Assembly (NCBI GenBank): GCA_903908555.1
Contig: CAIVSG010000061.1
Location: 1-41,065, forward strand
DNA: 41,065 nucleotides
From: an uncultured Chlorobiaceae bacterium
GTDB lineage: Bacteria > Bacteroidota > Chlorobiia > Chlorobiales > Chlorobiaceae
Reading direction: 5' to 3'
Part shown: positions 907-40,530 of the stretch, in pieces
How positions within the stretch are numbered: position 1 is the first letter of the stretch
How the letters are laid out: every line of letters begins with the position of its first letter
Program-made: the position numbers and the translations under genes
Notes under the pieces: model-generated
Seen by the model: the letters and a program-made list of their open reading frames with translations, nothing else
Told to the model about the DNA's origin: nothing
Database searches by the model: none

Positions 907-1064
907 GAAAGAAAGTGCTGAGTGCCGAGTGCTGAGTGCTGAGGTAAGAAATTGAAAACAGTTGGCAGTGGGCAGTCTGCAGTTGGCAGAGGAAGAGAAA
1001 AGGGCGTTGAGAATTGCCAATTGCCAACTGCCGACTGCCGACTGCCGACTGCCGACTGCCAACT
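895..1064. repeat. Composite heptamer element: GTGCTGA units plus inverted GGCAGTN / ACTGCCN arms
   Basis: GTGCTGA units 895-943, arm 961-990, arm 1013-1064, spacer AGAGGAAGAgaaaagggcgtTGAGAATTGCC. Confidence 0.88.
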
Positions 1065-1095
1065 CTCACACAGCACTTTATTTAATAAACTACTA

Positions 1096-4722: not shown

Positions 4723-6852
4723 ATGCCGAATATTCATGCCCCAATGAATACTCTTTTCCCACTTACTGTCTGGCGTGCACCCTGTGTCGGGATAATGTTT
4801 CTGCTCGTCCTTTTTTTCTCTGCCCATGCATGGGGGAGGCCACTGGTGCTTGGTGAGCAAGGTTCATATGAACTGGCAGGCCACATGGACCTCCTGAAAG
4901 ACCCGACACTACGCATGGACTTTAGTGAAGTCCTCAAAGCGGGGGAGAAGGGTAGTAGTTTCCGCCATCTTGATGGAAACCTCAATAACGGTTATAAAAA
5001 GGAAGCCTGCTGGGTTCGACTCACTATTGAGCGCAACCCGTCATTCCCCGAGCATGGCTGGCTCAGGCTTAAACCCAACTATATCAATTACCTTACCCTC
5101 TATATCCAGATCCCTGGTCATGACCCCTCGCTTGCATCCTCATACCAGATAGTCCGGCTTGGCAACCATATACCGGCACATGAACGTCCCGTGCTCCACC
5201 CCGACTTTGTTGTCCCTCTTGTTATGCAGGAATCTCAACCGGTAATCATTTATGCACGGGTTTTCTCAAACAGCTCCATCAGTCTTGCCGGGATGATTCA
5301 CACCGATGAAGACCTGCGCGACTACACCAACCGCCACGTCATCTTCCAGTCAGCCTTTCTCGGCATTTTCCTGACAATCCTCTTGATAAACGTCATCTTT
5401 TATATTTTTACCCGAGACAAGCTTTTTCTCTCTTATTCGATCTATTTGCTTGCAGGAATCATAGTGAACTTCGCTGTTGAGGGGGTATTGACCCTGCTCT
5501 TCCCGTCAATTGTTCACCTTGTCTCTGATTATCTTGTCTATGGTGGACTTGGTTTGAATATTCTGGTGTACAGCGAGTTCTCCCGCATTCTGTTCTCTAA
5601 GGCTACAGGTAGATGGAGCAGGCTATACATGCGATTTCTCTCATTGCTCGGTTTTGTGACAATTGTTGCTGTGCATGTTGGCTTCTATCCGCTGATGGCC
5701 CCGTTAGCCTTTATCGGATTATTAAGCCTGGTTGCAATACAATTGGGTTTGAGTCACAGGTTGAGTGTCTATTTTCCCGGCTCCGAAATCTATATTGTTC
5801 TGGCTTTTGTCGTCAACGCCCTCGGTTATTTTCATATGCTGCTTCGTCTTATCGGCATTATACCGTTGGGTTTTTTATGGGATATGAATACCCTTCAGTT
5901 CACCTCCCTGTTCCATATAACTCTTATATCTATAGCACTCTCCAGACGGGTACTTATAGCTGAACGGGTGCTGACGGAGAGTGCCAAGCAAGCACTTAAT
6001 GCCGCAAAAGAGACTGAACAAAAGGCACTTGCTCTTGCCGGCGATATGACGCAGGAACTTCTCAAAAGCAAGACACAGCTTGAAGGGGCCTTAGCCTCTG
6101 AACAACAGGTTCTCGAACAGCAGCATCGTTTTCTTTCAATGTTATCACACGAATACCGTACACCGCTGGCAGTTATCAGGGGCAACCTTGACCTCATTGA
6201 TATTCAGAACATCACACAACAATGCCGGTACGATGAAGAGCTTACCGCAATGCACCTTGCCGTTGACCGGCTTGTTGAAGTCATGGAAGTCTCTTTAGAA
6301 CACAGTCGTCTTTATGACAAACATATAAAAGGCGGAGTCAAGCCTGTGTTCATCGCTCCTTTTCTTTCTTCAATGGTTGCAACGATGCAGTCAATGTGGC
6401 CACATCATTTTTTCAGCTACACAGAGGCTTCCGATTCCCAACCCATCGTCGGTGAGGCTAAATACCTTAAAACAGCGCTTTTTAACCTTCTTGATAATGC
6501 CCGTAAATACTCTCCGCCCGACTCAGCAATCAAAGTTGAAAGCCACATTGAACAAGGCGACGTAGTTGTCACAATACAAAATCAGTCAGTGGCCTTAATC
6601 GGCAAGGAAGGGGACGGGCTATTCGAAAAATATGCACGGGGTGACAACAGCCACAATACCAGCGGAGCCGGAATAGGACTGTGGCTTGTCCGCCAGATCA
6701 TCGAACAGCATAACGGAGTGGTAAATCTCGAAGCCAGGGGCTCAATCATCCAGGCAACCATCCACCTTCCCCTGGCCAACCCTGAACCCTCAGCCCTCAG
6801 CCCTCAGCCCTCAGCACTCTCTTCCCCCAGCCCTCAAACCAATTTTTTATGA
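4723..6852 (+). CDS. 7TM-DISM-type sensor histidine kinase
   Basis: Extracellular 7TMR-DISM-like domain, multiple TM helices, HisKA H-box LSMLSHEYRTPLAVIRGN, HATPase motifs (NLLDNARKYSP, GAGIGLWLVRQIIEQHNG). Start at TTG 4714 or ATG 4723. Confidence 0.9.
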   Translation: MPNIHAPMNTLFPLTVWRAPCVGIMFLLVLFFSAHAWGRPLVLGEQGSYELAGHMDLLKDPTLRMDFSEVLKAGEKGSSFRHLDGNLNNGYKKEACWVRLTIERNPSFPEHGWLRLKPNYINYLTLYIQIPGHDPSLASSYQIVRLGNHIPAHERPVLHPDFVVPLVMQESQPVIIYARVFSNSSISLAGMIHTDEDLRDYTNRHVIFQSAFLGIFLTILLINVIFYIFTRDKLFLSYSIYLLAGIIVNFAVEGVLTLLFPSIVHLVSDYLVYGGLGLNILVYSEFSRILFSKATGRWSRLYMRFLSLLGFVTIVAVHVGFYPLMAPLAFIGLLSLVAIQLGLSHRLSVYFPGSEIYIVLAFVVNALGYFHMLLRLIGIIPLGFLWDMNTLQFTSLFHITLISIALSRRVLIAERVLTESAKQALNAAKETEQKALALAGDMTQELLKSKTQLEGALASEQQVLEQQHRFLSMLSHEYRTPLAVIRGNLDLIDIQNITQQCRYDEELTAMHLAVDRLVEVMEVSLEHSRLYDKHIKGGVKPVFIAPFLSSMVATMQSMWPHHFFSYTEASDSQPIVGEAKYLKTALFNLLDNARKYSPPDSAIKVESHIEQGDVVVTIQNQSVALIGKEGDGLFEKYARGDNSHNTSGAGIGLWLVRQIIEQHNGVVNLEARGSIIQATIHLPLANPEPSALSPQPSALSSPSPQTNFL
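6786..6836. repeat. Heptamer repeats (GCCCTCA)n inside the 3' end of the histidine kinase gene
   Basis: ccctcagccctcagccctcagccctcagcactc read directly; translates as PSALSPQPSALS. Confidence 0.9.
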
Positions 6853-7550
6853 CTTTAGATAAACGGATAATCATTGTCGAAGACGACAAACCCCTTCTCG
6901 CCAGTGTTGTTAAATACCTGACACTTGACGGATATGAAGTCACAGGGGTCAGCACAGCGCACGAGTTCTATCAGCTTTTGTTCGCTGAATCCTATTCGGT
7001 AGCAATAATTGATGTTGGCCTGCCCGACCAGAACGGACTGGTTCTCACTGAATATGTCCGCAATAACACCAGCATGCGGATCATCATGTTTACTGCCCGG
7101 GCCTCCATTGACGACCAGATTGCCGGTCAACAGGCAGGTGCGGACATCTACCTTGTCAAACCGGTCGATTTTCGCCAACTCTCAGCCTCCATCGCAACGC
7201 TTCTCAGTCGTCTTGCCGGGCCACCATTACCTTTTAAGACCGAAAAACCTCAGCACTGGAGACTTTTTGTCACTCATTGGGCACTTGAAACGCCGCAAGG
7301 GGAGCGCATCCTCCTTACCGCCAAAGAACTTGACTTTTTGACTCTGCTCGTCGCCACCCCGAATGCCGTCGTTTCAAGGCTTGCATTGCTGAACAAGCTT
7401 GGCTACTTGAACAACGAATCCGGTAGCCACTCACTGCAATCCCTGATCAATCGCCTGCGTCAAAAAATTGAATTCCATAACACCCCCTCTCCCATCCAGA
7501 CATCCCACTCAGTCGGCTACCTTTTTAAGGACGACATTACCATCGAGTGA
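6849..7550 (+). CDS. OmpR/PhoB-family response regulator (receiver plus winged helix)
   Basis: RIIIVEDDKP, AIIDVGLPDQNG, MFTARAS, LVKPVDF; C-terminal DNA-binding domain with LLTAKELDFLTLLV. ATGA overlap with the kinase stop. Confidence 0.93.
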   Translation: MTLDKRIIIVEDDKPLLASVVKYLTLDGYEVTGVSTAHEFYQLLFAESYSVAIIDVGLPDQNGLVLTEYVRNNTSMRIIMFTARASIDDQIAGQQAGADIYLVKPVDFRQLSASIATLLSRLAGPPLPFKTEKPQHWRLFVTHWALETPQGERILLTAKELDFLTLLVATPNAVVSRLALLNKLGYLNNESGSHSLQSLINRLRQKIEFHNTPSPIQTSHSVGYLFKDDITIE

Positions 7551-16143: not shown

Positions 16144-16836
16144 ATGACTGAATTTGATGGCCTCAATGAACCGCTTGGTGTTGAGGAGATGCTTGTTCTA
16201 GAAGCGTTTCTGACTTCAGAGCGATCTTCCGGTAATGCGATGTCGATTGATGCTCTCGATGGATTCTTTACCGCTCTTGTTATCGGGCCGGTAATGGTAT
16301 TGCCAAGTGAGTGGATTCCGTTTTTTCTTGGAGCAGAGATGGATGGGGAATTTTTGTCGATTGAAGAGGCACAGAATATCATGCAGCTGCTTTTGCGCTA
16401 TATGAATTCGATTGCAGCTGCTTTTCAGGAAGATGCAGACGAGTTTGTTCCAATTTTTGAATGTTGTGAGTTTGAAACCATGGCGGACGAAAATTCAGCA
16501 GCTACTTCCTGGGCTCTTGGATTTATTATGGGTATGGAGCTGCGTTTTGATGAGTGGAAGCCGATCTTTGATGTGGGGGAAGAAGATAGCGAGGATGAGG
16601 ACTTGATTCTTGCCCCGATTCTTCTACTTGCCGGTCAGGATCACGAGGCTCATGAGCTGACGGATAAAGACAGGGAGATACTTAAAGAGCTTGTGGGTGA
16701 AAGTGTTATGAATATTTTCTGGTTCTGGCAGGCCTATAGTGAGCAGGTCGAACAACCGCTTCAATCCAATCAAAAAAAGCCAAGGATCATTCCTTTTGAC
16801 GAGAATGCCTCTCTTTTTGGTCCTGACAGTCAGTAA
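16144..16836 (+). CDS. UPF0149 (YgfB/YecA) family protein
   Basis: MSIDALDGFFTALVIGPVMVLPSEWIPFFLG and SWALGFIMGMELRFDEWKPIF. Confidence 0.8.
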   Translation: MTEFDGLNEPLGVEEMLVLEAFLTSERSSGNAMSIDALDGFFTALVIGPVMVLPSEWIPFFLGAEMDGEFLSIEEAQNIMQLLLRYMNSIAAAFQEDADEFVPIFECCEFETMADENSAATSWALGFIMGMELRFDEWKPIFDVGEEDSEDEDLILAPILLLAGQDHEAHELTDKDREILKELVGESVMNIFWFWQAYSEQVEQPLQSNQKKPRIIPFDENASLFGPDSQ

Positions 16837-16857: not shown

Positions 16858-17505
16858 ATGCTTAGCCTTCTTGTTTTTTTCTTTGTGCTTGTTATAACAC
16901 TCCCTCTTGACGCAGCGGAAAACAGAGACTTTGTTGATATCTCAGAGCTGGACGGCTCTCTTATTCTGGATATCCGCTATGCTACCAGCCGAAATTTTAC
17001 TGGTAAGGTCATGTATCCCGTTGTGCGCTGTCTGTTGAGGCGTGATGCGGCATTGCGGGTTATCAGGGTGGAGCAGAAATTAAGAACACAGGGTTACCGT
17101 TTAATTATTTTTGACGGATATCGTCCTCTTTCGGTGCAGAAGAAGTTCTGGAATATTCTGCCGGACGAGCGCTATGTGGCAGATCCTGGAAAGGGATCGA
17201 GGCATAATCGAGGAGCAGCGGTTGATGTCAGTCTCGGTGATCTTGCCGGTCACGCTCTTGCTATGCCTTCGGACTATGACGATTTTTCAGAGAAAGCCCA
17301 TCGTGATTATTCCGGCGCATCTGGGGAAGCTCAAAGAAACTGTGCACTCCTTGAAGCTGCCATGAGGGAAGAGGGATTTGATCCCTTTCCCACAGAGTGG
17401 TGGCATTTTGATGCTCCGGGATGGGAACGGTATCCTGTTTCAGATTTTTCTCTCGAGGAATTTAAAGGAGAAAACTGTGACGTGACTCAAAAGAGAAAAG
17501 ATTGA
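16858..17505 (+). CDS. D-alanyl-D-alanine dipeptidase (VanX/DdpX family)
   Basis: LILDIRYATSRNFTGKVMY, IFDGYRPLSVQKKFW, SRHNRGAAVDVSLGD, FDPFPTEWWHFDAPGW. Confidence 0.93.
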   Translation: MLSLLVFFFVLVITLPLDAAENRDFVDISELDGSLILDIRYATSRNFTGKVMYPVVRCLLRRDAALRVIRVEQKLRTQGYRLIIFDGYRPLSVQKKFWNILPDERYVADPGKGSRHNRGAAVDVSLGDLAGHALAMPSDYDDFSEKAHRDYSGASGEAQRNCALLEAAMREEGFDPFPTEWWHFDAPGWERYPVSDFSLEEFKGENCDVTQKRKD

Positions 17506-17535: not shown

Positions 17536-18339
17536 ATGACGGATTGTTCTCTGGGAGTTGTGATAACAGGTGGGAGTGCCGGACTTGGATATGCTCTTGC
17601 TTCAGTCTTTCTTGCTGCCGGTGATCGAGTGGTTATTTGCGGTCGCAATCAAGAGCGGCTGGATGGGGCGTTGCGTTCGCTCTGTGAAGAATTTCCAGAG
17701 GGAGTGGCTTATGGTATACGGTGTGATGTCGGTGATCCTCATGCGGTGAAGCTCCTTGCAGGGTTTGCCGCCGATCGGCTCGGGATGGTTGACCGATGGA
17801 TCAATAATGCCGGAACAGCGGGTCAGTTGAAGCGTCCGTTATGGATGCTTCGGCCGGATGATATCCTTGAGACCTGTACGACCAATCTTTCAGGCTCACT
17901 ATTGCTTTGTGCTGAAGCTGTGCGGCTTATGGAGAGTCAGCCACCGTCAACGGAAGCGATCTACCATATCTTTAATATGGGTTTTTCTTCTTCAGGTGCG
18001 TCTTTTTCGCGCTCTGCAGTGCCTCATAAGGCGTCAAAAAGGGGGGTGGCTGAGCTGACACATTTTCTTTCCCGTGAGTTGCGGGCTGCCGGAAAAACCA
18101 GTATAGGAGTACATGAGTTGAGTCCGGGTCTTGTGCTTACCGGGCTGCTTCTGAAGGACGCTTCACCGGAAGCGATGAGGATGTTCAAGGTAATTGCAGA
18201 GCGACCTGAACATGTGGCATGCCGACTCGCGCCGAAAATCCGATCAATTACTGGTTCCAATCGCCATATCAGGTATCAGCCTTTTGTGATGACGCTTTTG
18301 CGGGCGATAAAGGCAATCCCTTGGATTATTGGAAAATAA
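17536..18339 (+). CDS. Short-chain dehydrogenase/reductase resembling NYC1/NOL (chlorophyll b reductase) family
   Basis: GVVITGGSAGLGYALASVFLAAGDRVVICGR, DRWINNAGTAG, HIFNMG, HELSPGLVLTGLLL, MFKVIAERPEHVACRLAPKIRSI align by eye to plant NYC1/NOL motifs. Confidence 0.75.
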   Translation: MTDCSLGVVITGGSAGLGYALASVFLAAGDRVVICGRNQERLDGALRSLCEEFPEGVAYGIRCDVGDPHAVKLLAGFAADRLGMVDRWINNAGTAGQLKRPLWMLRPDDILETCTTNLSGSLLLCAEAVRLMESQPPSTEAIYHIFNMGFSSSGASFSRSAVPHKASKRGVAELTHFLSRELRAAGKTSIGVHELSPGLVLTGLLLKDASPEAMRMFKVIAERPEHVACRLAPKIRSITGSNRHIRYQPFVMTLLRAIKAIPWIIGK

Positions 18340-36017: not shown

Positions 36018-36377
36018 ATGAAAAATATCATTGCGACAACTATATTTGAATCGCTCTCATCCGGTGTAAGGCTGGATGTCTATCGATTACTCGTCAAGAA
36101 AGGCCCCGAAGGTATGGTGGCAGGGGAGATTGGTTCAGCGCTTGACGTGCCGCCGACAAATCTTTCCTTCCATCTTAAAACTCTCACGCATACCGGTCTC
36201 CTTACCGTGGAGCAGGAAGGTCGCTTTCAGCGCTATCGGGCAAATCTTCCGTTAATGCTTGAAGTGATTGCCTACCTCACCGAGGAGTGCTGTGGCGGCA
36301 AGCTGGAAGAGTGCGTCGATTTCAGTGCTCAATCAATTTGTCCGCAGTGCATTGACACGTCATCAGACAAAAAATAA
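36018..36377 (+). CDS. arsR: ArsR-family transcriptional regulator
   Basis: LSSGVRLDVYRLLVKKGPEGMVAGEIGSALDVPPTNLSFHLKTLTHTGLLTVEQEGRFQRYRA; C-terminal CC...C; first gene of the ars operon. Confidence 0.92.
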   Translation: MKNIIATTIFESLSSGVRLDVYRLLVKKGPEGMVAGEIGSALDVPPTNLSFHLKTLTHTGLLTVEQEGRFQRYRANLPLMLEVIAYLTEECCGGKLEECVDFSAQSICPQCIDTSSDKK

Positions 36378-36404
36378 ATTCCTAATCCATTTATATCGTT
36401 TACC

Positions 36405-36833
36405 ATGAAGAAATCAGTTCTCATTCTCTGTACCGGCAACTCATGCCGCAGCCAGATGGCCGAGGGTTTTCTCCGTTCATTTGGCAGTGCTATCGACGTC
36501 TATTCCGCTGGCACAAAACCCGCAGAGTCAGTTCATCCGATTGCCGTGAAGGTTATGCTCGAAGAGTGGATCGATATCAGTTTGTACAAACCAAAAAGCG
36601 TAGACGAATTTCTCCAGAGACCATTCGACTATGTCATAACTGTTTGCGATGCGGCAAAAGAGTCCTGCCCGCTCTTTACCGGCGCGGTGGAGCATCGGCT
36701 GCATATCGGGTTTGATGACCCGGCTGAAGCCACGGGTACCCAGGAAGAAAAGCTTGCAGAATTCCGGCGGGTGCGCAACGAAATCAACCAGCGTTTTCGA
36801 AAGTTTTATAACGATAATCTAACTGGGAAATGA
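36405..36833 (+). CDS. arsC: Arsenate reductase, LMW-phosphatase type
   Basis: [34 protein letters not shown]. Confidence 0.93.
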
Positions 36834-36837
36834 CGCT

Positions 36838-37893
36838 ATGAGCAAAGCAGTAAAACAGCTTTCATTTCTTGATCGCTACCTGACCCTCTGGATTTTTCTT
36901 GCCATGGCGGCAGGTGTGCTGTCGGGCTATCTATTCCCTGGTATTCCGGGGTTCTGGAACCTTTTTCAGTCAGGCACAACCAATATCCTTATAGCTGCAG
37001 GACTCATTGTCATGATGTATCCTCCGCTTGCAAAGGTAAAGTATGAGGAACTGGGAGATGTGTTTCGCAACACAAAAGTGCTTGCACTGTCTTTAGTGCA
37101 GAACTGGGTGATCGGACCTGTTCTTATGTTCGTCCTGGCAGTGCTTCTGCTCTCCGATATGCCTCACTACATGGCAGGCCTCATCATGATTGGCCTTGCC
37201 CGCTGCATTGCCATGGTCATTGTCTGGAACGAACTTGCCAAAGGGGATACGGAGTATGCCGCCGGACTTGTTGCCTTTAACTCGGTTTTTCAGGTTCTCT
37301 TTTTCCCTCTCTATGCCTGGATTTTTCTGACGGTACTGCCAAAGTGGCTGGGTCTTGCCTCATTTGCTGTTGACATTTCCATAGCGGACATTGCCACGTC
37401 AGTCTTTATCTATCTTGGTATTCCCTTTATTGCGGGCTTCCTGACCCGTTTTGTCATGCTTCGCCTGAAAGGAAAGGAGTGGTATGAGGGTGAGTTCATT
37501 CCCCGCATCAGTCCGCTAACGCTTGTTGCGCTGCTTTTCACCATTGTCGTCATGTTTTCACTGAAGGGGGAATATATTGTTAAAATACCAATGGATGTGG
37601 TGCGTATTGCTATACCTCTCTTGCTCTATTTCGTGATTATGTTTCTGCTTTCGTTTTATATGGGAAAGAAAGTCGGGGCGGATTATTCCAAAACAGCAAC
37701 ACTCTCATTTACGGCAGCAAGCAACAACTTCGAACTGGCTATTGCGGTAGCCATAGCAGTTTTCGGCATCAATTCCGGAGAAGCGTTTGCAGCAGTGATA
37801 GGTCCGCTGGTTGAGGTTCCAGCCCTGATAGCACTGGTCAATGTCGCGCTCTGGTTCAAGAGCAAATATTTTGGTGAAACAATAGAAGCCTGA
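36838..37893 (+). CDS. acr3: ACR3-family arsenite efflux transporter
   Basis: About 10 TM helices; [53 protein letters not shown]. Confidence 0.95.
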
Positions 37894-37920
37894 TATCAAC
37901 ACATTATTCATCATTCTATC

Positions 37921-38379
37921 ATGCAAAAAAAACAAAACGTGCTTTTTCTCTGTACCGGCAACTCTTGCCGGAGCCAGATGGCCGAAGGATTACTTCGGAA
38001 CCTGGCAGGGGAGCGATTCGAAGCTTTAAGTGCAGGGCTTGAACCGAACCATGAAGTTCATCCTTTGGCGATACAGGTTATGCAGGAAATTGGTATTGAT
38101 ATAAGTGCTCAAAAACCTAAAGCAGTGGATATCTATCTTGGCAAAACTCCGATTCATTACCTGATGATTGTGTGCAACAAGGCACAGTCAACCTGCCCTC
38201 GAATTTGGCCGGGACTGCCTAATGAAAAACGATATTACTGGCCAGTCACCGATCCGGCGGCGACTTCCGGAACAACGGAAGAGCAACTTGCGGTTTTCCG
38301 TGAGGTTCGTGACGAACTACAGGAGAAAATAACCTTATGGCTTAACGACGTTTCAGTGTCAGCTTCAATTAACAGCTAA
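37921..38379 (+). CDS. arsC: Second LMW-phosphatase-type arsenate reductase
   Basis: [63 protein letters not shown]. Confidence 0.92.
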   Translation: MQKKQNVLFLCTGNSCRSQMAEGLLRNLAGERFEALSAGLEPNHEVHPLAIQVMQEIGIDISAQKPKAVDIYLGKTPIHYLMIVCNKAQSTCPRIWPGLPNEKRYYWPVTDPAATSGTTEEQLAVFREVRDELQEKITLWLNDVSVSASINS

Positions 38380-38391
38380 TCAAGGTTTAAG

Positions 38392-38754
38392 ATGAAAAAA
38401 ATACAGGTATTTGATCCGGCCCTTTGTTGCTCTACCGGGGTGTGTGGTGTAGACGCAGATCAGTCATTGATCAACTTCTCAGCAGATGTAGACTGGGCAA
38501 GGCAAAAGGGTGCCCTTATTGAACGATTCAATCTGGCACAGCAGCCAATGGCTTTCGCAGAAAATCAGATTGTAAAATCATTTTTAAAGCTCTCAACAGA
38601 GGATGGCCTTCCGCTTATTCTCCTTGATGGCGCCATAGTTTTGGCGGGACGATACCCAAGCCGTGCTGAGCTTGCTCGCTGGGTCGACATCGCCCCTTCT
38701 GACGAAGGCACTAAACCTGCTAAAAGTTGTTGCTCCGGCAGTAGCTGCTGCTGA
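38392..38754 (+). CDS. arsD: Arsenic metallochaperone ArsD
   Basis: IQVFDPALCCSTGVCGVDADQSLINFSADVDWA; C-terminal SCCSGSSCC. Confidence 0.94.
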   Translation: MKKIQVFDPALCCSTGVCGVDADQSLINFSADVDWARQKGALIERFNLAQQPMAFAENQIVKSFLKLSTEDGLPLILLDGAIVLAGRYPSRAELARWVDIAPSDEGTKPAKSCCSGSSCC

Positions 38755-38772
38755 AAATAATCAAACAATACT

Positions 38773-40530
38773 ATGGTATTTCTCAAGCAGCCACCACGCT
38801 TCCTTTTCTTCACCGGAAAAGGCGGCGTCGGCAAAACCTCTATTGCATGCGCAACGGCCATGCAACTTGCCGATGACGGCAAAAGAGTGCTCCTTGTCAG
38901 CACCGATCCGGCATCCAACGTCGGGCAGGTTTTCGGTGTAACTATAGGCAATCAGATTACTGCCATCAGTGCAGTGGAACGCCTGTTTTCTCTTGAAATC
39001 GATCCTCAGCAGGCAGCTCAGCTCTACCGGGAAAGAATTGTTGGACCGGTACGCGGCTTACTCCCTGAAACCGTGGTCAACAGCATTGAGGAACAACTTT
39101 CCGGAGCATGTACAACTGAAATTGCCGCCTTTGACGAATTCACTTCGTTACTCACTGACACTGCATTGCATGCCGAATATGACCATATCATTTTTGATAC
39201 GGCACCAACCGGCCATACCATCCGGCTGCTGCAGCTGCCCGGTGCCTGGAGCAGCTTTATCGAGGAGGGCAAAGGCGATGCGTCCTGCCTCGGCCCGTTA
39301 GCCGGACTGGTAAAGCAAAAAGCGCAGTACAAAGCCGCTGTTGAGGCTTTAGCCGATCCTCTGCATACACGCATGGTGTTGGTTTCCAGAGCTCAGAATG
39401 CAACCTTGCAGGAAGTCGCACGCACCTGTCGAGAGCTCGCTGCCATTGGTATCTCACAACACTATCTTGTCATAAACGGACTGTTACCCCATAGCGAAAC
39501 CCTGCAGGATGACCTCGCAAAGGCTATCTTTGCCCGTGAGCAGGCGGCACTCTCAGCAATGCCTCTCATTCTCACAACACTGCCTTGTGATCACCTCTCT
39601 CTCAAGTCCTTCAATCTTGTCGGTCTTGAGGCCTTGCGTCAATTACTTACTGAAAACGTTCCACCACAACTATTCGAAATAGATCAGACCACTACCTTCA
39701 ACGCTCCAGGACTCTCGTCACTGGTTGATGAAATCGCGGCCGATAGTCATGGCCTCATCATGTTTATGGGTAAGGGTGGTGTTGGCAAAACCACATTAGC
39801 TGCTGCAGTTGCCGTTGAATTGGCAAATCGAGGCCTCCAGACACACCTGACGACTACAGACCCTGCAGCTCACCTTAGCGGAACGTTGACTGGTGAAGTG
39901 GAGAGTCTTATCGTCAGCCGGATTGACCCTGAAGTTGAAACCGAACGTTACCGCGAGCACGTATTGGAAACCAAGGGAGCTCAGCTCGATGCCGAAGGGC
40001 TCGCCCTGCTTCAGGAAGACCTGCGTTCGCCATGCACAGAAGAAATCGCTGTATTTCAGGCATTCTCACGCATTATCAGGGAGGCTGATAAAAAATTTGT
40101 TGTTATAGACACTGCTCCCACAGGCCATACACTGCTCCTGCTCGATGCAACCGGAGCATATCACCGCGAAGTCAGCCGTCAGGCAGGTAAAAATGGTTTG
40201 CACGAAGCCACACCCATGATGCAGCTGCAAGACCCGAAACAGACAAAGGTGTTGATTGTCACATTAGCCGAAACAACGCCTGTACTTGAAGCCGTCAATC
40301 TCCAAGCCGACCTGCGTCGTGCCGGCATCGAACCCTGGGGCTGGATAATCAACAACAGTATTGCAGCCGCCAGAGAACTCCGCTCCCCACTCCTGAAGCA
40401 ACGCGCGCAAAATGAAGTCAAAGAAATTGAAGCTGTGGCACTTCACCACACCACTCGCTACGCTGTTATCCCCCTAATGAAAGAAGAGCCCGTAGGCCAG
40501 GGGCACCTCCGTCATCTTATCCAACCCTGA
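38773..40530 (+). CDS. arsA: Arsenite-transporting ATPase ArsA, two-domain
   Basis: Two P-loops (FFTGKGGVGKTSIA and MFMGKGGVGKTTLA), two DTAPTGHT motifs. Confidence 0.95.
   Translation: MVFLKQPPRFLFFTGKGGVGKTSIACATAMQLADDGKRVLLVSTDPASNVGQVFGVTIGNQITAISAVERLFSLEIDPQQAAQLYRERIVGPVRGLLPETVVNSIEEQLSGACTTEIAAFDEFTSLLTDTALHAEYDHIIFDTAPTGHTIRLLQLPGAWSSFIEEGKGDASCLGPLAGLVKQKAQYKAAVEALADPLHTRMVLVSRAQNATLQEVARTCRELAAIGISQHYLVINGLLPHSETLQDDLAKAIFAREQAALSAMPLILTTLPCDHLSLKSFNLVGLEALRQLLTENVPPQLFEIDQTTTFNAPGLSSLVDEIAADSHGLIMFMGKGGVGKTTLAAAVAVELANRGLQTHLTTTDPAAHLSGTLTGEVESLIVSRIDPEVETERYREHVLETKGAQLDAEGLALLQEDLRSPCTEEIAVFQAFSRIIREADKKFVVIDTAPTGHTLLLLDATGAYHREVSRQAGKNGLHEATPMMQLQDPKQTKVLIVTLAETTPVLEAVNLQADLRRAGIEPWGWIINNSIAAARELRSPLLKQRAQNEVKEIEAVALHHTTRYAVIPLMKEEPVGQGHLRHLIQP

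What the first reader, a model, noticed from the sequence alone, without database searches (positions are those of the whole stretch)
17536..18339. NYC1/NOL-like chlorophyll-reductase SDR with the catalytic YxxxK tyrosine read as histidine
Seen: TGGSAGLG, NNAG and HELSPGLVLTGLLL motifs are intact, but the YxxxK segment reads SAVPHKASKRG, and codon 18025-18027 is CAT (His). In remembered plant NYC1/NOL sequences this region is TAVYGSTKCG. Knowledge: NYC1/NOL reduce the C7 formyl of chlorophyll b, and some green sulfur bacteria make a C7-formyl pigment (BChl e). Inference: this could be a tetrapyrrole C7 reductase with altered chemistry, an inactivated enzyme, or a differently used SDR.
Basis: partly seen in the sequence, partly recalled or inferred. 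Interest (0 to 1): 0.6.

Follow-up and report, generated by a model that had tools for sequence, protein, structure and literature searches.

The report
Green-sulfur SDR with histidine active site
Most green sulfur bacteria carry an enzyme that looks like the closest known bacterial cousin of the plant enzyme that breaks down chlorophyll b, but the tyrosine at the heart of its active site has been permanently replaced by histidine, so it probably does related chemistry in a different way on an as yet unknown substrate.

Summary
The ORF at 17536-18339 encodes a 267-aa classical SDR whose YxxxK tyrosine is His164 (CAT, 18025-18027). It is no error or fresh mutation. All 66 distinct orthologues examined have His there (39 CAC, 27 CAT codons), under purifying selection. 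They come from Chlorobiaceae plus one purple sulfur bacterium, Thiorhodococcus minor.

The gene is in 66 of 86 Chlorobiaceae genomes and in none of the other genomes sampled in the phylum. Lys168, Asn117, the cofactor glycines and an NADP-type Arg37 are kept, and Ser/Thr is kept at 151.

Two related clades keep Tyr or Phe: bacterial SDRs of the same genomes, and plant NYC1/NOL. A NOL sequence recalled from memory groups as sister to the His clade (99/96) and, searched back, finds only Chlorobiaceae among 346 genomes of the phylum.

The proposed bacteriochlorophyll e link fails. bciD is absent from the window's genome, and the SDR is in 4 of 9 bciD genomes against 62 of 77 without.

Best reading: a functional NADPH-dependent reductase, a sister lineage of NYC1/NOL, with His as proton donor and an unknown (perhaps tetrapyrrole) substrate. 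A new variant of a known kind.

The parts
17536..18339 (+). His-type classical SDR gene, 267 aa, NYC1/NOL-like
   Evidence: ORF; Pfam adh_short E 1.3e-27; orthologue alignment; AF2 model, pLDDT 89
17566..17589 (+). cofactor-binding glycine motif TGGSAGLG (residues 11-18)
   Evidence: T11, G12, G16 and G18 conserved in at least 97% of 66 orthologues
17644..17646 (+). Arg37 after the second strand, the position that favours NADP(H) in SDRs (assignment from family knowledge)
   Evidence: present in all 65 orthologues that cover it
17884..17886 (+). Asn117, Asn of the SDR catalytic tetrad
   Evidence: invariant in 66/66
17986..17988 (+). Ser151, 13 residues before His164, the usual catalytic Ser spacing (loop alignment ambiguous by one residue)
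   Evidence: Ser in 61 and Thr in 5 of 66
18025..18027 (+). His164 (CAT) in place of the catalytic Tyr of YxxxK
   Evidence: 66/66 His, CAC 39 / CAT 27
18037..18039 (+). Lys168, catalytic Lys of the (Y)HxxxK motif
   Evidence: invariant in 66/66
16144..16836 (+). upstream co-directional UPF0149 protein gene, possible operon partner; found near the SDR in 11 of the other loci
16858..17505 (+). upstream co-directional D-Ala-D-Ala dipeptidase (Peptidase_M15), ends 30 bp before the SDR; found near the SDR in 6 of the other loci

Best explanation
The gene encodes a functional, NADP(H)-dependent classical short-chain reductase. It forms a lineage of green sulfur bacteria (Chlorobiaceae), sister to the plant chlorophyll b reductases NYC1/NOL. 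The catalytic tyrosine is permanently replaced by histidine, so the working tetrad is Asn117 - Ser151(Thr) - His164 - Lys168. Inferred mechanism: NADPH bound in the Rossmann cleft gives hydride to a carbonyl of a bulky hydrophobic, possibly tetrapyrrole, substrate, while His164, held near Lys168 and the nicotinamide ribose, supplies the proton that Tyr supplies in ordinary SDRs. It is not a step of bacteriochlorophyll e synthesis, and because about a quarter of Chlorobiaceae lack it, it is not an essential pigment-biosynthesis step. A role in pigment turnover or repair, or in an accessory carbonyl reduction, fits better. Shown: fixed His, conserved remainder of the active site, purifying selection, distribution, no link to bciD. 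Inferred: catalytic activity, His as general acid, substrate class. The sister-group claim rests on a recalled plant sequence.
For: His in 66/66 orthologues with two codons. Low dN/dS. Asn117, Lys168, Ser/Thr151, the glycine motif and Arg37 kept. In the His clade three neighbouring active-site positions changed together (E/D149 to G, G150 to F, Y164 to H) relative to both the Tyr/Phe-bearing relatives and NOL, a rewrite rather than decay. His193 and Arg236 are shared with NOL but not with the other relatives. NOL (recalled) is sister to the His clade 99/96, and the reverse search passes 1e-33 only in Chlorobiaceae. All listed PDB fold matches are SDRs. Restricted to Chlorobiaceae plus a phototrophic purple bacterium. 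bciD does not track.
Against: No biochemical evidence of activity; Tyr-to-His mutants of ordinary SDRs are generally expected to be weak or dead (family knowledge). No pigment gene was recognised next to it in the loci read: the neighbours are a Bmp lipoprotein, HpnA-like and NmrA-like proteins, a methyltransferase and cell-wall hydrolases. The plant comparison rests on a sequence recalled from memory after seeing the query. Cyanobacterial and algal relatives could not be searched. The loop alignment leaves the catalytic Ser uncertain by one residue.
Confidence: 0.5

Rival explanations
1. Pseudoenzyme: the Tyr loss abolished hydride-transfer chemistry, and the protein persists as an NADPH-binding regulatory, assembly or redox-sensing protein.
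For: Loss of the key general acid. The gene is dispensable, absent from 20 of 86 Chlorobiaceae genomes including several scored 99-100% complete. No constant metabolic neighbour.
Against: Asn, Lys and Ser/Thr of the tetrad are held invariant, which a binding-only protein need not keep. The replacement is always His, an acid/base residue, never Phe, Leu or another residue.
Confidence: 0.25
2. C7 (formyl) reductase of bacteriochlorophyllide e, or part of a C7 pigment cycle.
For: Kinship with chlorophyll b reductase. Occurs in phototrophs.
Against: The window's genome has no bciD, so no known route to a C7-formyl pigment (the assembly is 81% complete). SDR present in 62 of 77 genomes without bciD and only 4 of 9 with it. 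Not in the bciD cluster of Cba. limnaeum, where it lies over a megabase away.
Confidence: 0.05
3. Ordinary SDR of lipid, sugar or xenobiotic metabolism that happens to use His; the NOL resemblance reflects shared classical-SDR ancestry only.
For: The related Tyr clade occurs in non-phototrophs (Nonomuraea). No pigment neighbours recognised. The closest PDB hits are polyketide and sugar reductases.
Against: NOL groups with the His clade, not with the Tyr clade, sharing D30, H193 and R236. Restricted to phototrophs.
Confidence: 0.2

Closest known systems
Plant chlorophyll b reductases NYC1 / NOL
   Same: Classical SDR with the same HIFNM-type loop, the VH(E/N)LSPG segment and the C-terminal segment around Arg236; about 40% identity to recalled NOL; sister group in the tree.
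   Different: Tyr of YxxxK is His; (D/E)G of the active-site loop is GF; green sulfur bacteria are not known to make chlorophyll b, and no bciD for BChl e is found in the window's genome. No activity known.
Tyr-type SDR relatives in Chlorobiaceae and Chromatiaceae (L002, L095, L100-L105)
   Same: Full-length homologues at 105-135 bits against the His-clade profile, found in some of the same genomes.
   Different: Keep Tyr (or Phe in one subclade) and the EGxGS-type loop; separate clade with 100/96 support.
Classical ketoreductases (actinorhodin KR 1x7g, gluconate 5-dehydrogenase 1vl8)
   Same: Same fold (Foldseek E about 1e-17) and cofactor motif.
   Different: 22-28% identity; canonical Tyr; no longer loop between Asn and the active-site Ser.

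Membership tests
Classical SDR | TGxxxGxG cofactor motif and NNAG | tested here: met
Classical SDR | Rossmann fold of classical SDRs | tested here: met
   AF2 model pLDDT 89 and Foldseek to 1x7g/1vl8 E about 1e-17
Classical SDR | catalytic YxxxK | tested here: not met
   HxxxK in 66/66 orthologues; Lys met
Classical SDR | catalytic Asn and Ser | tested here: inconclusive
   Asn117 invariant; Ser/Thr151 at the canonical 13-residue spacing, but HMMER aligns Phe150 to the 1vl8 Ser
NYC1/NOL chlorophyll b reductase | groups with plant NYC1/NOL in a tree | tested here: inconclusive
   sister 99/96, but to a NOL sequence recalled from memory; no verified plant sequence could be fetched
NYC1/NOL chlorophyll b reductase | catalytic Tyr in YG(S/A)TK | tested here: not met
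   His164
NYC1/NOL chlorophyll b reductase | organism contains a C7-formyl chlorin | tested here: not met
   no bciD in G000 (81% complete); SDR does not track bciD in 86 genomes
NYC1/NOL chlorophyll b reductase | NADPH-dependent reduction of the 7-formyl group | not testable with these tools
   needs an enzyme assay
BChl e biosynthesis cluster | encoded with bciD/cruB | tested here: not met
   in Cba. limnaeum it is at 1.21 Mb, bciD at 2.44 Mb

The most novel reading that the evidence does not exclude
Green sulfur bacteria hold the nearest bacterial relatives of the plant chlorophyll b reductases. These use a histidine-based SDR active site to reduce a carbonyl of a (bacterio)chlorophyll, revealing a pigment-turnover step in these bacteria and a bacterial source for NYC1/NOL.
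Probability: 0.2. Interest if true: 0.75.

Novelty: new variant of a known kind. Interest (0 to 1): 0.5.

Why it matters
The YxxxK tyrosine is the defining catalytic residue of one of the largest enzyme superfamilies. A whole lineage in which it is fixed as His, with the rest of the site kept, is a natural experiment on whether SDR chemistry can run on another proton donor. If the kinship with NYC1/NOL holds with verified sequences, it also bears on where plants got chlorophyll b reductase and on whether green sulfur bacteria turn over their pigments. The gene appears to be present in Chlorobaculum tepidum, a workable laboratory strain, so a knockout is feasible.

Tried and rejected
1) Sequencing error or recent point mutation: rejected, 66/66 orthologues have His. 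2) Pseudogene: rejected, dN/dS about 0.2 and intact ORFs. 3) BChl e link: rejected by bciD co-occurrence. 4) Operon context as a clue to substrate: no constant partner; Bmp lipoprotein, HpnA-like protein and methyltransferase follow in about half of the loci, and an NmrA-like protein follows in about 15. 5) Getting a verified plant or algal NYC1/NOL from viral contigs: only a 36-aa fragment at 50% identity. The PDB search with the recalled NOL listed no NYC1 or NOL entry among its best 60 matches. In plasmids the listed best matches were SDRs at about 29-34% identity. Cyanobacterial genomes could not be reached with the handles available. 6) Literature for green sulfur NYC1/NOL homologues or an HxxxK SDR: none found in the held library. 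7) Labelling the gene at L109:8349-8987 as bchF2 was wrong; Pfam calls it DUF1997.

Full report
What is there. The ORF at 17536-18339 (+) encodes a 267-residue classical SDR (Pfam adh_short 97 bits, E 1.3e-27). The residue in the catalytic Tyr position of YxxxK is His164, codon CAT at 18025-18027, aligned opposite the catalytic Tyr of solved SDRs. The AlphaFold model is good (mean pLDDT 89, pTM 0.88), and the listed best PDB matches are SDRs.

Is the histidine real and kept? Orthologues were collected from GTDB genomes and from whole-genome searches. After removing identical sequences, 66 of 66 carry His at the site, encoded by both CAC (39) and CAT (27), and Ser (61) or Thr (5) sits 13 residues upstream. 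Asn117, Lys168, the glycine motif and the NADP-type Arg37 are invariant or nearly so. For the nearest relatives with unsaturated synonymous sites dN/dS is 0.18-0.21. A sequencing error, a fresh mutation or a decaying gene is therefore excluded.

Where it occurs. The clade is found in 66 of 86 Chlorobiaceae genomes of two genera and in none of the other genomes among 395 sampled across 171 genera of the phylum. Elsewhere it was found only in Thiorhodococcus minor: 1 of 210 genomes of that family, and no other match to its signature peptide in 369 genomes of that class. The chromosomal surroundings are shared in many Chlorobiaceae (NlpC/P60 upstream; Bmp, HpnA-like and methyltransferase genes downstream), which fits vertical descent with losses. 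Several genomes scored 99-100% complete lack it, so it is not an essential step of pigment synthesis (inference).

Relatives. A second group of SDRs in Chlorobiaceae, Chromatiaceae and Nonomuraea matches the His-clade profile over its full length at 105-135 bits but keeps Tyr, or Phe in one subclade. A plant NOL sequence written down from memory (not fetched; recall may have been influenced by the query) is 37-41% identical to the His clade over most of its length at 140-170 bits, against 31-38% at 98-125 bits for the Tyr group. It is sister to the His clade with 99/96 support. Searched back into 346 genomes of the phylum at E 1e-33 it finds only Chlorobiaceae (59 genomes), in each with the His clade as best match. 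His193 and Arg236 are shared by NOL and the His clade but not by the Tyr group. Relative to both, the His clade changed three active-site positions together: E/D149 to Gly, G150 to Phe and Y164 to His.

Test of the bacteriochlorophyll e idea. The published bciD primer (PMC3613366) matched one of 21 genomes, G001, taken to be Chlorobaculum limnaeum. Its BciD (L109:11121-12329, minus strand) was used to score the class: bciD is in 9 of 86 Chlorobiaceae genomes and not in the window's genome, which is 81% complete. The His-SDR is in 4 of those 9 and in 62 of the 77 without bciD (Fisher p = 0.029, in the direction opposite to the hypothesis and not corrected for relatedness). In G001 the two genes are more than a megabase apart. 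The hypothesis is not supported.

Mechanism. The most economical reading is an active NADPH-dependent reductase with a tetrad Asn117-Ser151-His164-Lys168, in which imidazolium replaces the phenol as proton donor. Catalysis, His as the acid, and the substrate are inferences. The substrate is unknown; a bulky (bacterio)chlorophyll-type carbonyl is suggested only by kinship and by restriction to phototrophs. The main rival is a pseudoenzyme that binds NADPH. The strict choice of His and the retained Asn, Ser/Thr and Lys argue against it but do not exclude it. The loop alignment leaves the catalytic Ser uncertain by one residue.

Verdict. Observation confirmed, interpretation partly supported: NYC1/NOL-like kinship plausible and well scored but based on a recalled reference, altered chemistry plausible, BChl e role rejected. 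A new variant of a known kind. No paper found in the held library describes NYC1/NOL relatives in green sulfur bacteria or an SDR with HxxxK, but that library is partial.

Noticed in passing
L109:7328-8104 (-) (G001, taken as Chlorobaculum limnaeum); also L156:6974-7747, L157:4571-5341, L154:5827-6597, L152:5421-6191: An SDR of the related clade lies next to a probable cruB-type lycopene cyclase and a DUF1997 gene, in four genomes also near bciD; its catalytic Tyr is Phe (GVFGTAK / GIFGTTK). It was not found in the bciD loci L153 and L155, which also lack the cruB-like gene, and is present in L152 without bciD, so it seems to travel with cruB rather than bciD.
   Followed up: partly
L050:6001-6759 and 6833-7423: Thiorhodococcus minor, a purple sulfur bacterium, carries the His-type SDR, probably by gene transfer, with a SAM methyltransferase gene starting a few bases downstream.
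   Followed up: partly
L024:1538-2413: An NmrA-like NAD(P)-binding protein follows the His-SDR in about 15 of 41 loci; it belongs to a multi-copy family of Chlorobiaceae with weaker relatives in family f2.
   Followed up: partly
window 36018-40530: Looks like an arsenic resistance operon: ArsR-type regulator, two arsenate-reductase-like phosphatases, ACR3-type permease, ArsD-like and double-domain ArsA-like ORFs (read from the translations).
   Followed up: no
window 952-1076: Short tandem-like repeats ([14 protein letters not shown] in translation) just ahead of a hybrid-cluster-protein-like ORF; the listed start there is probably too far upstream.
   Followed up: no
L107 (IMGVR_UViG_3300038829_000143): A viral contig holds a 36-aa stretch 50% identical to recalled NOL residues 160-195, with no further NOL-like segment around it.
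   Followed up: partly
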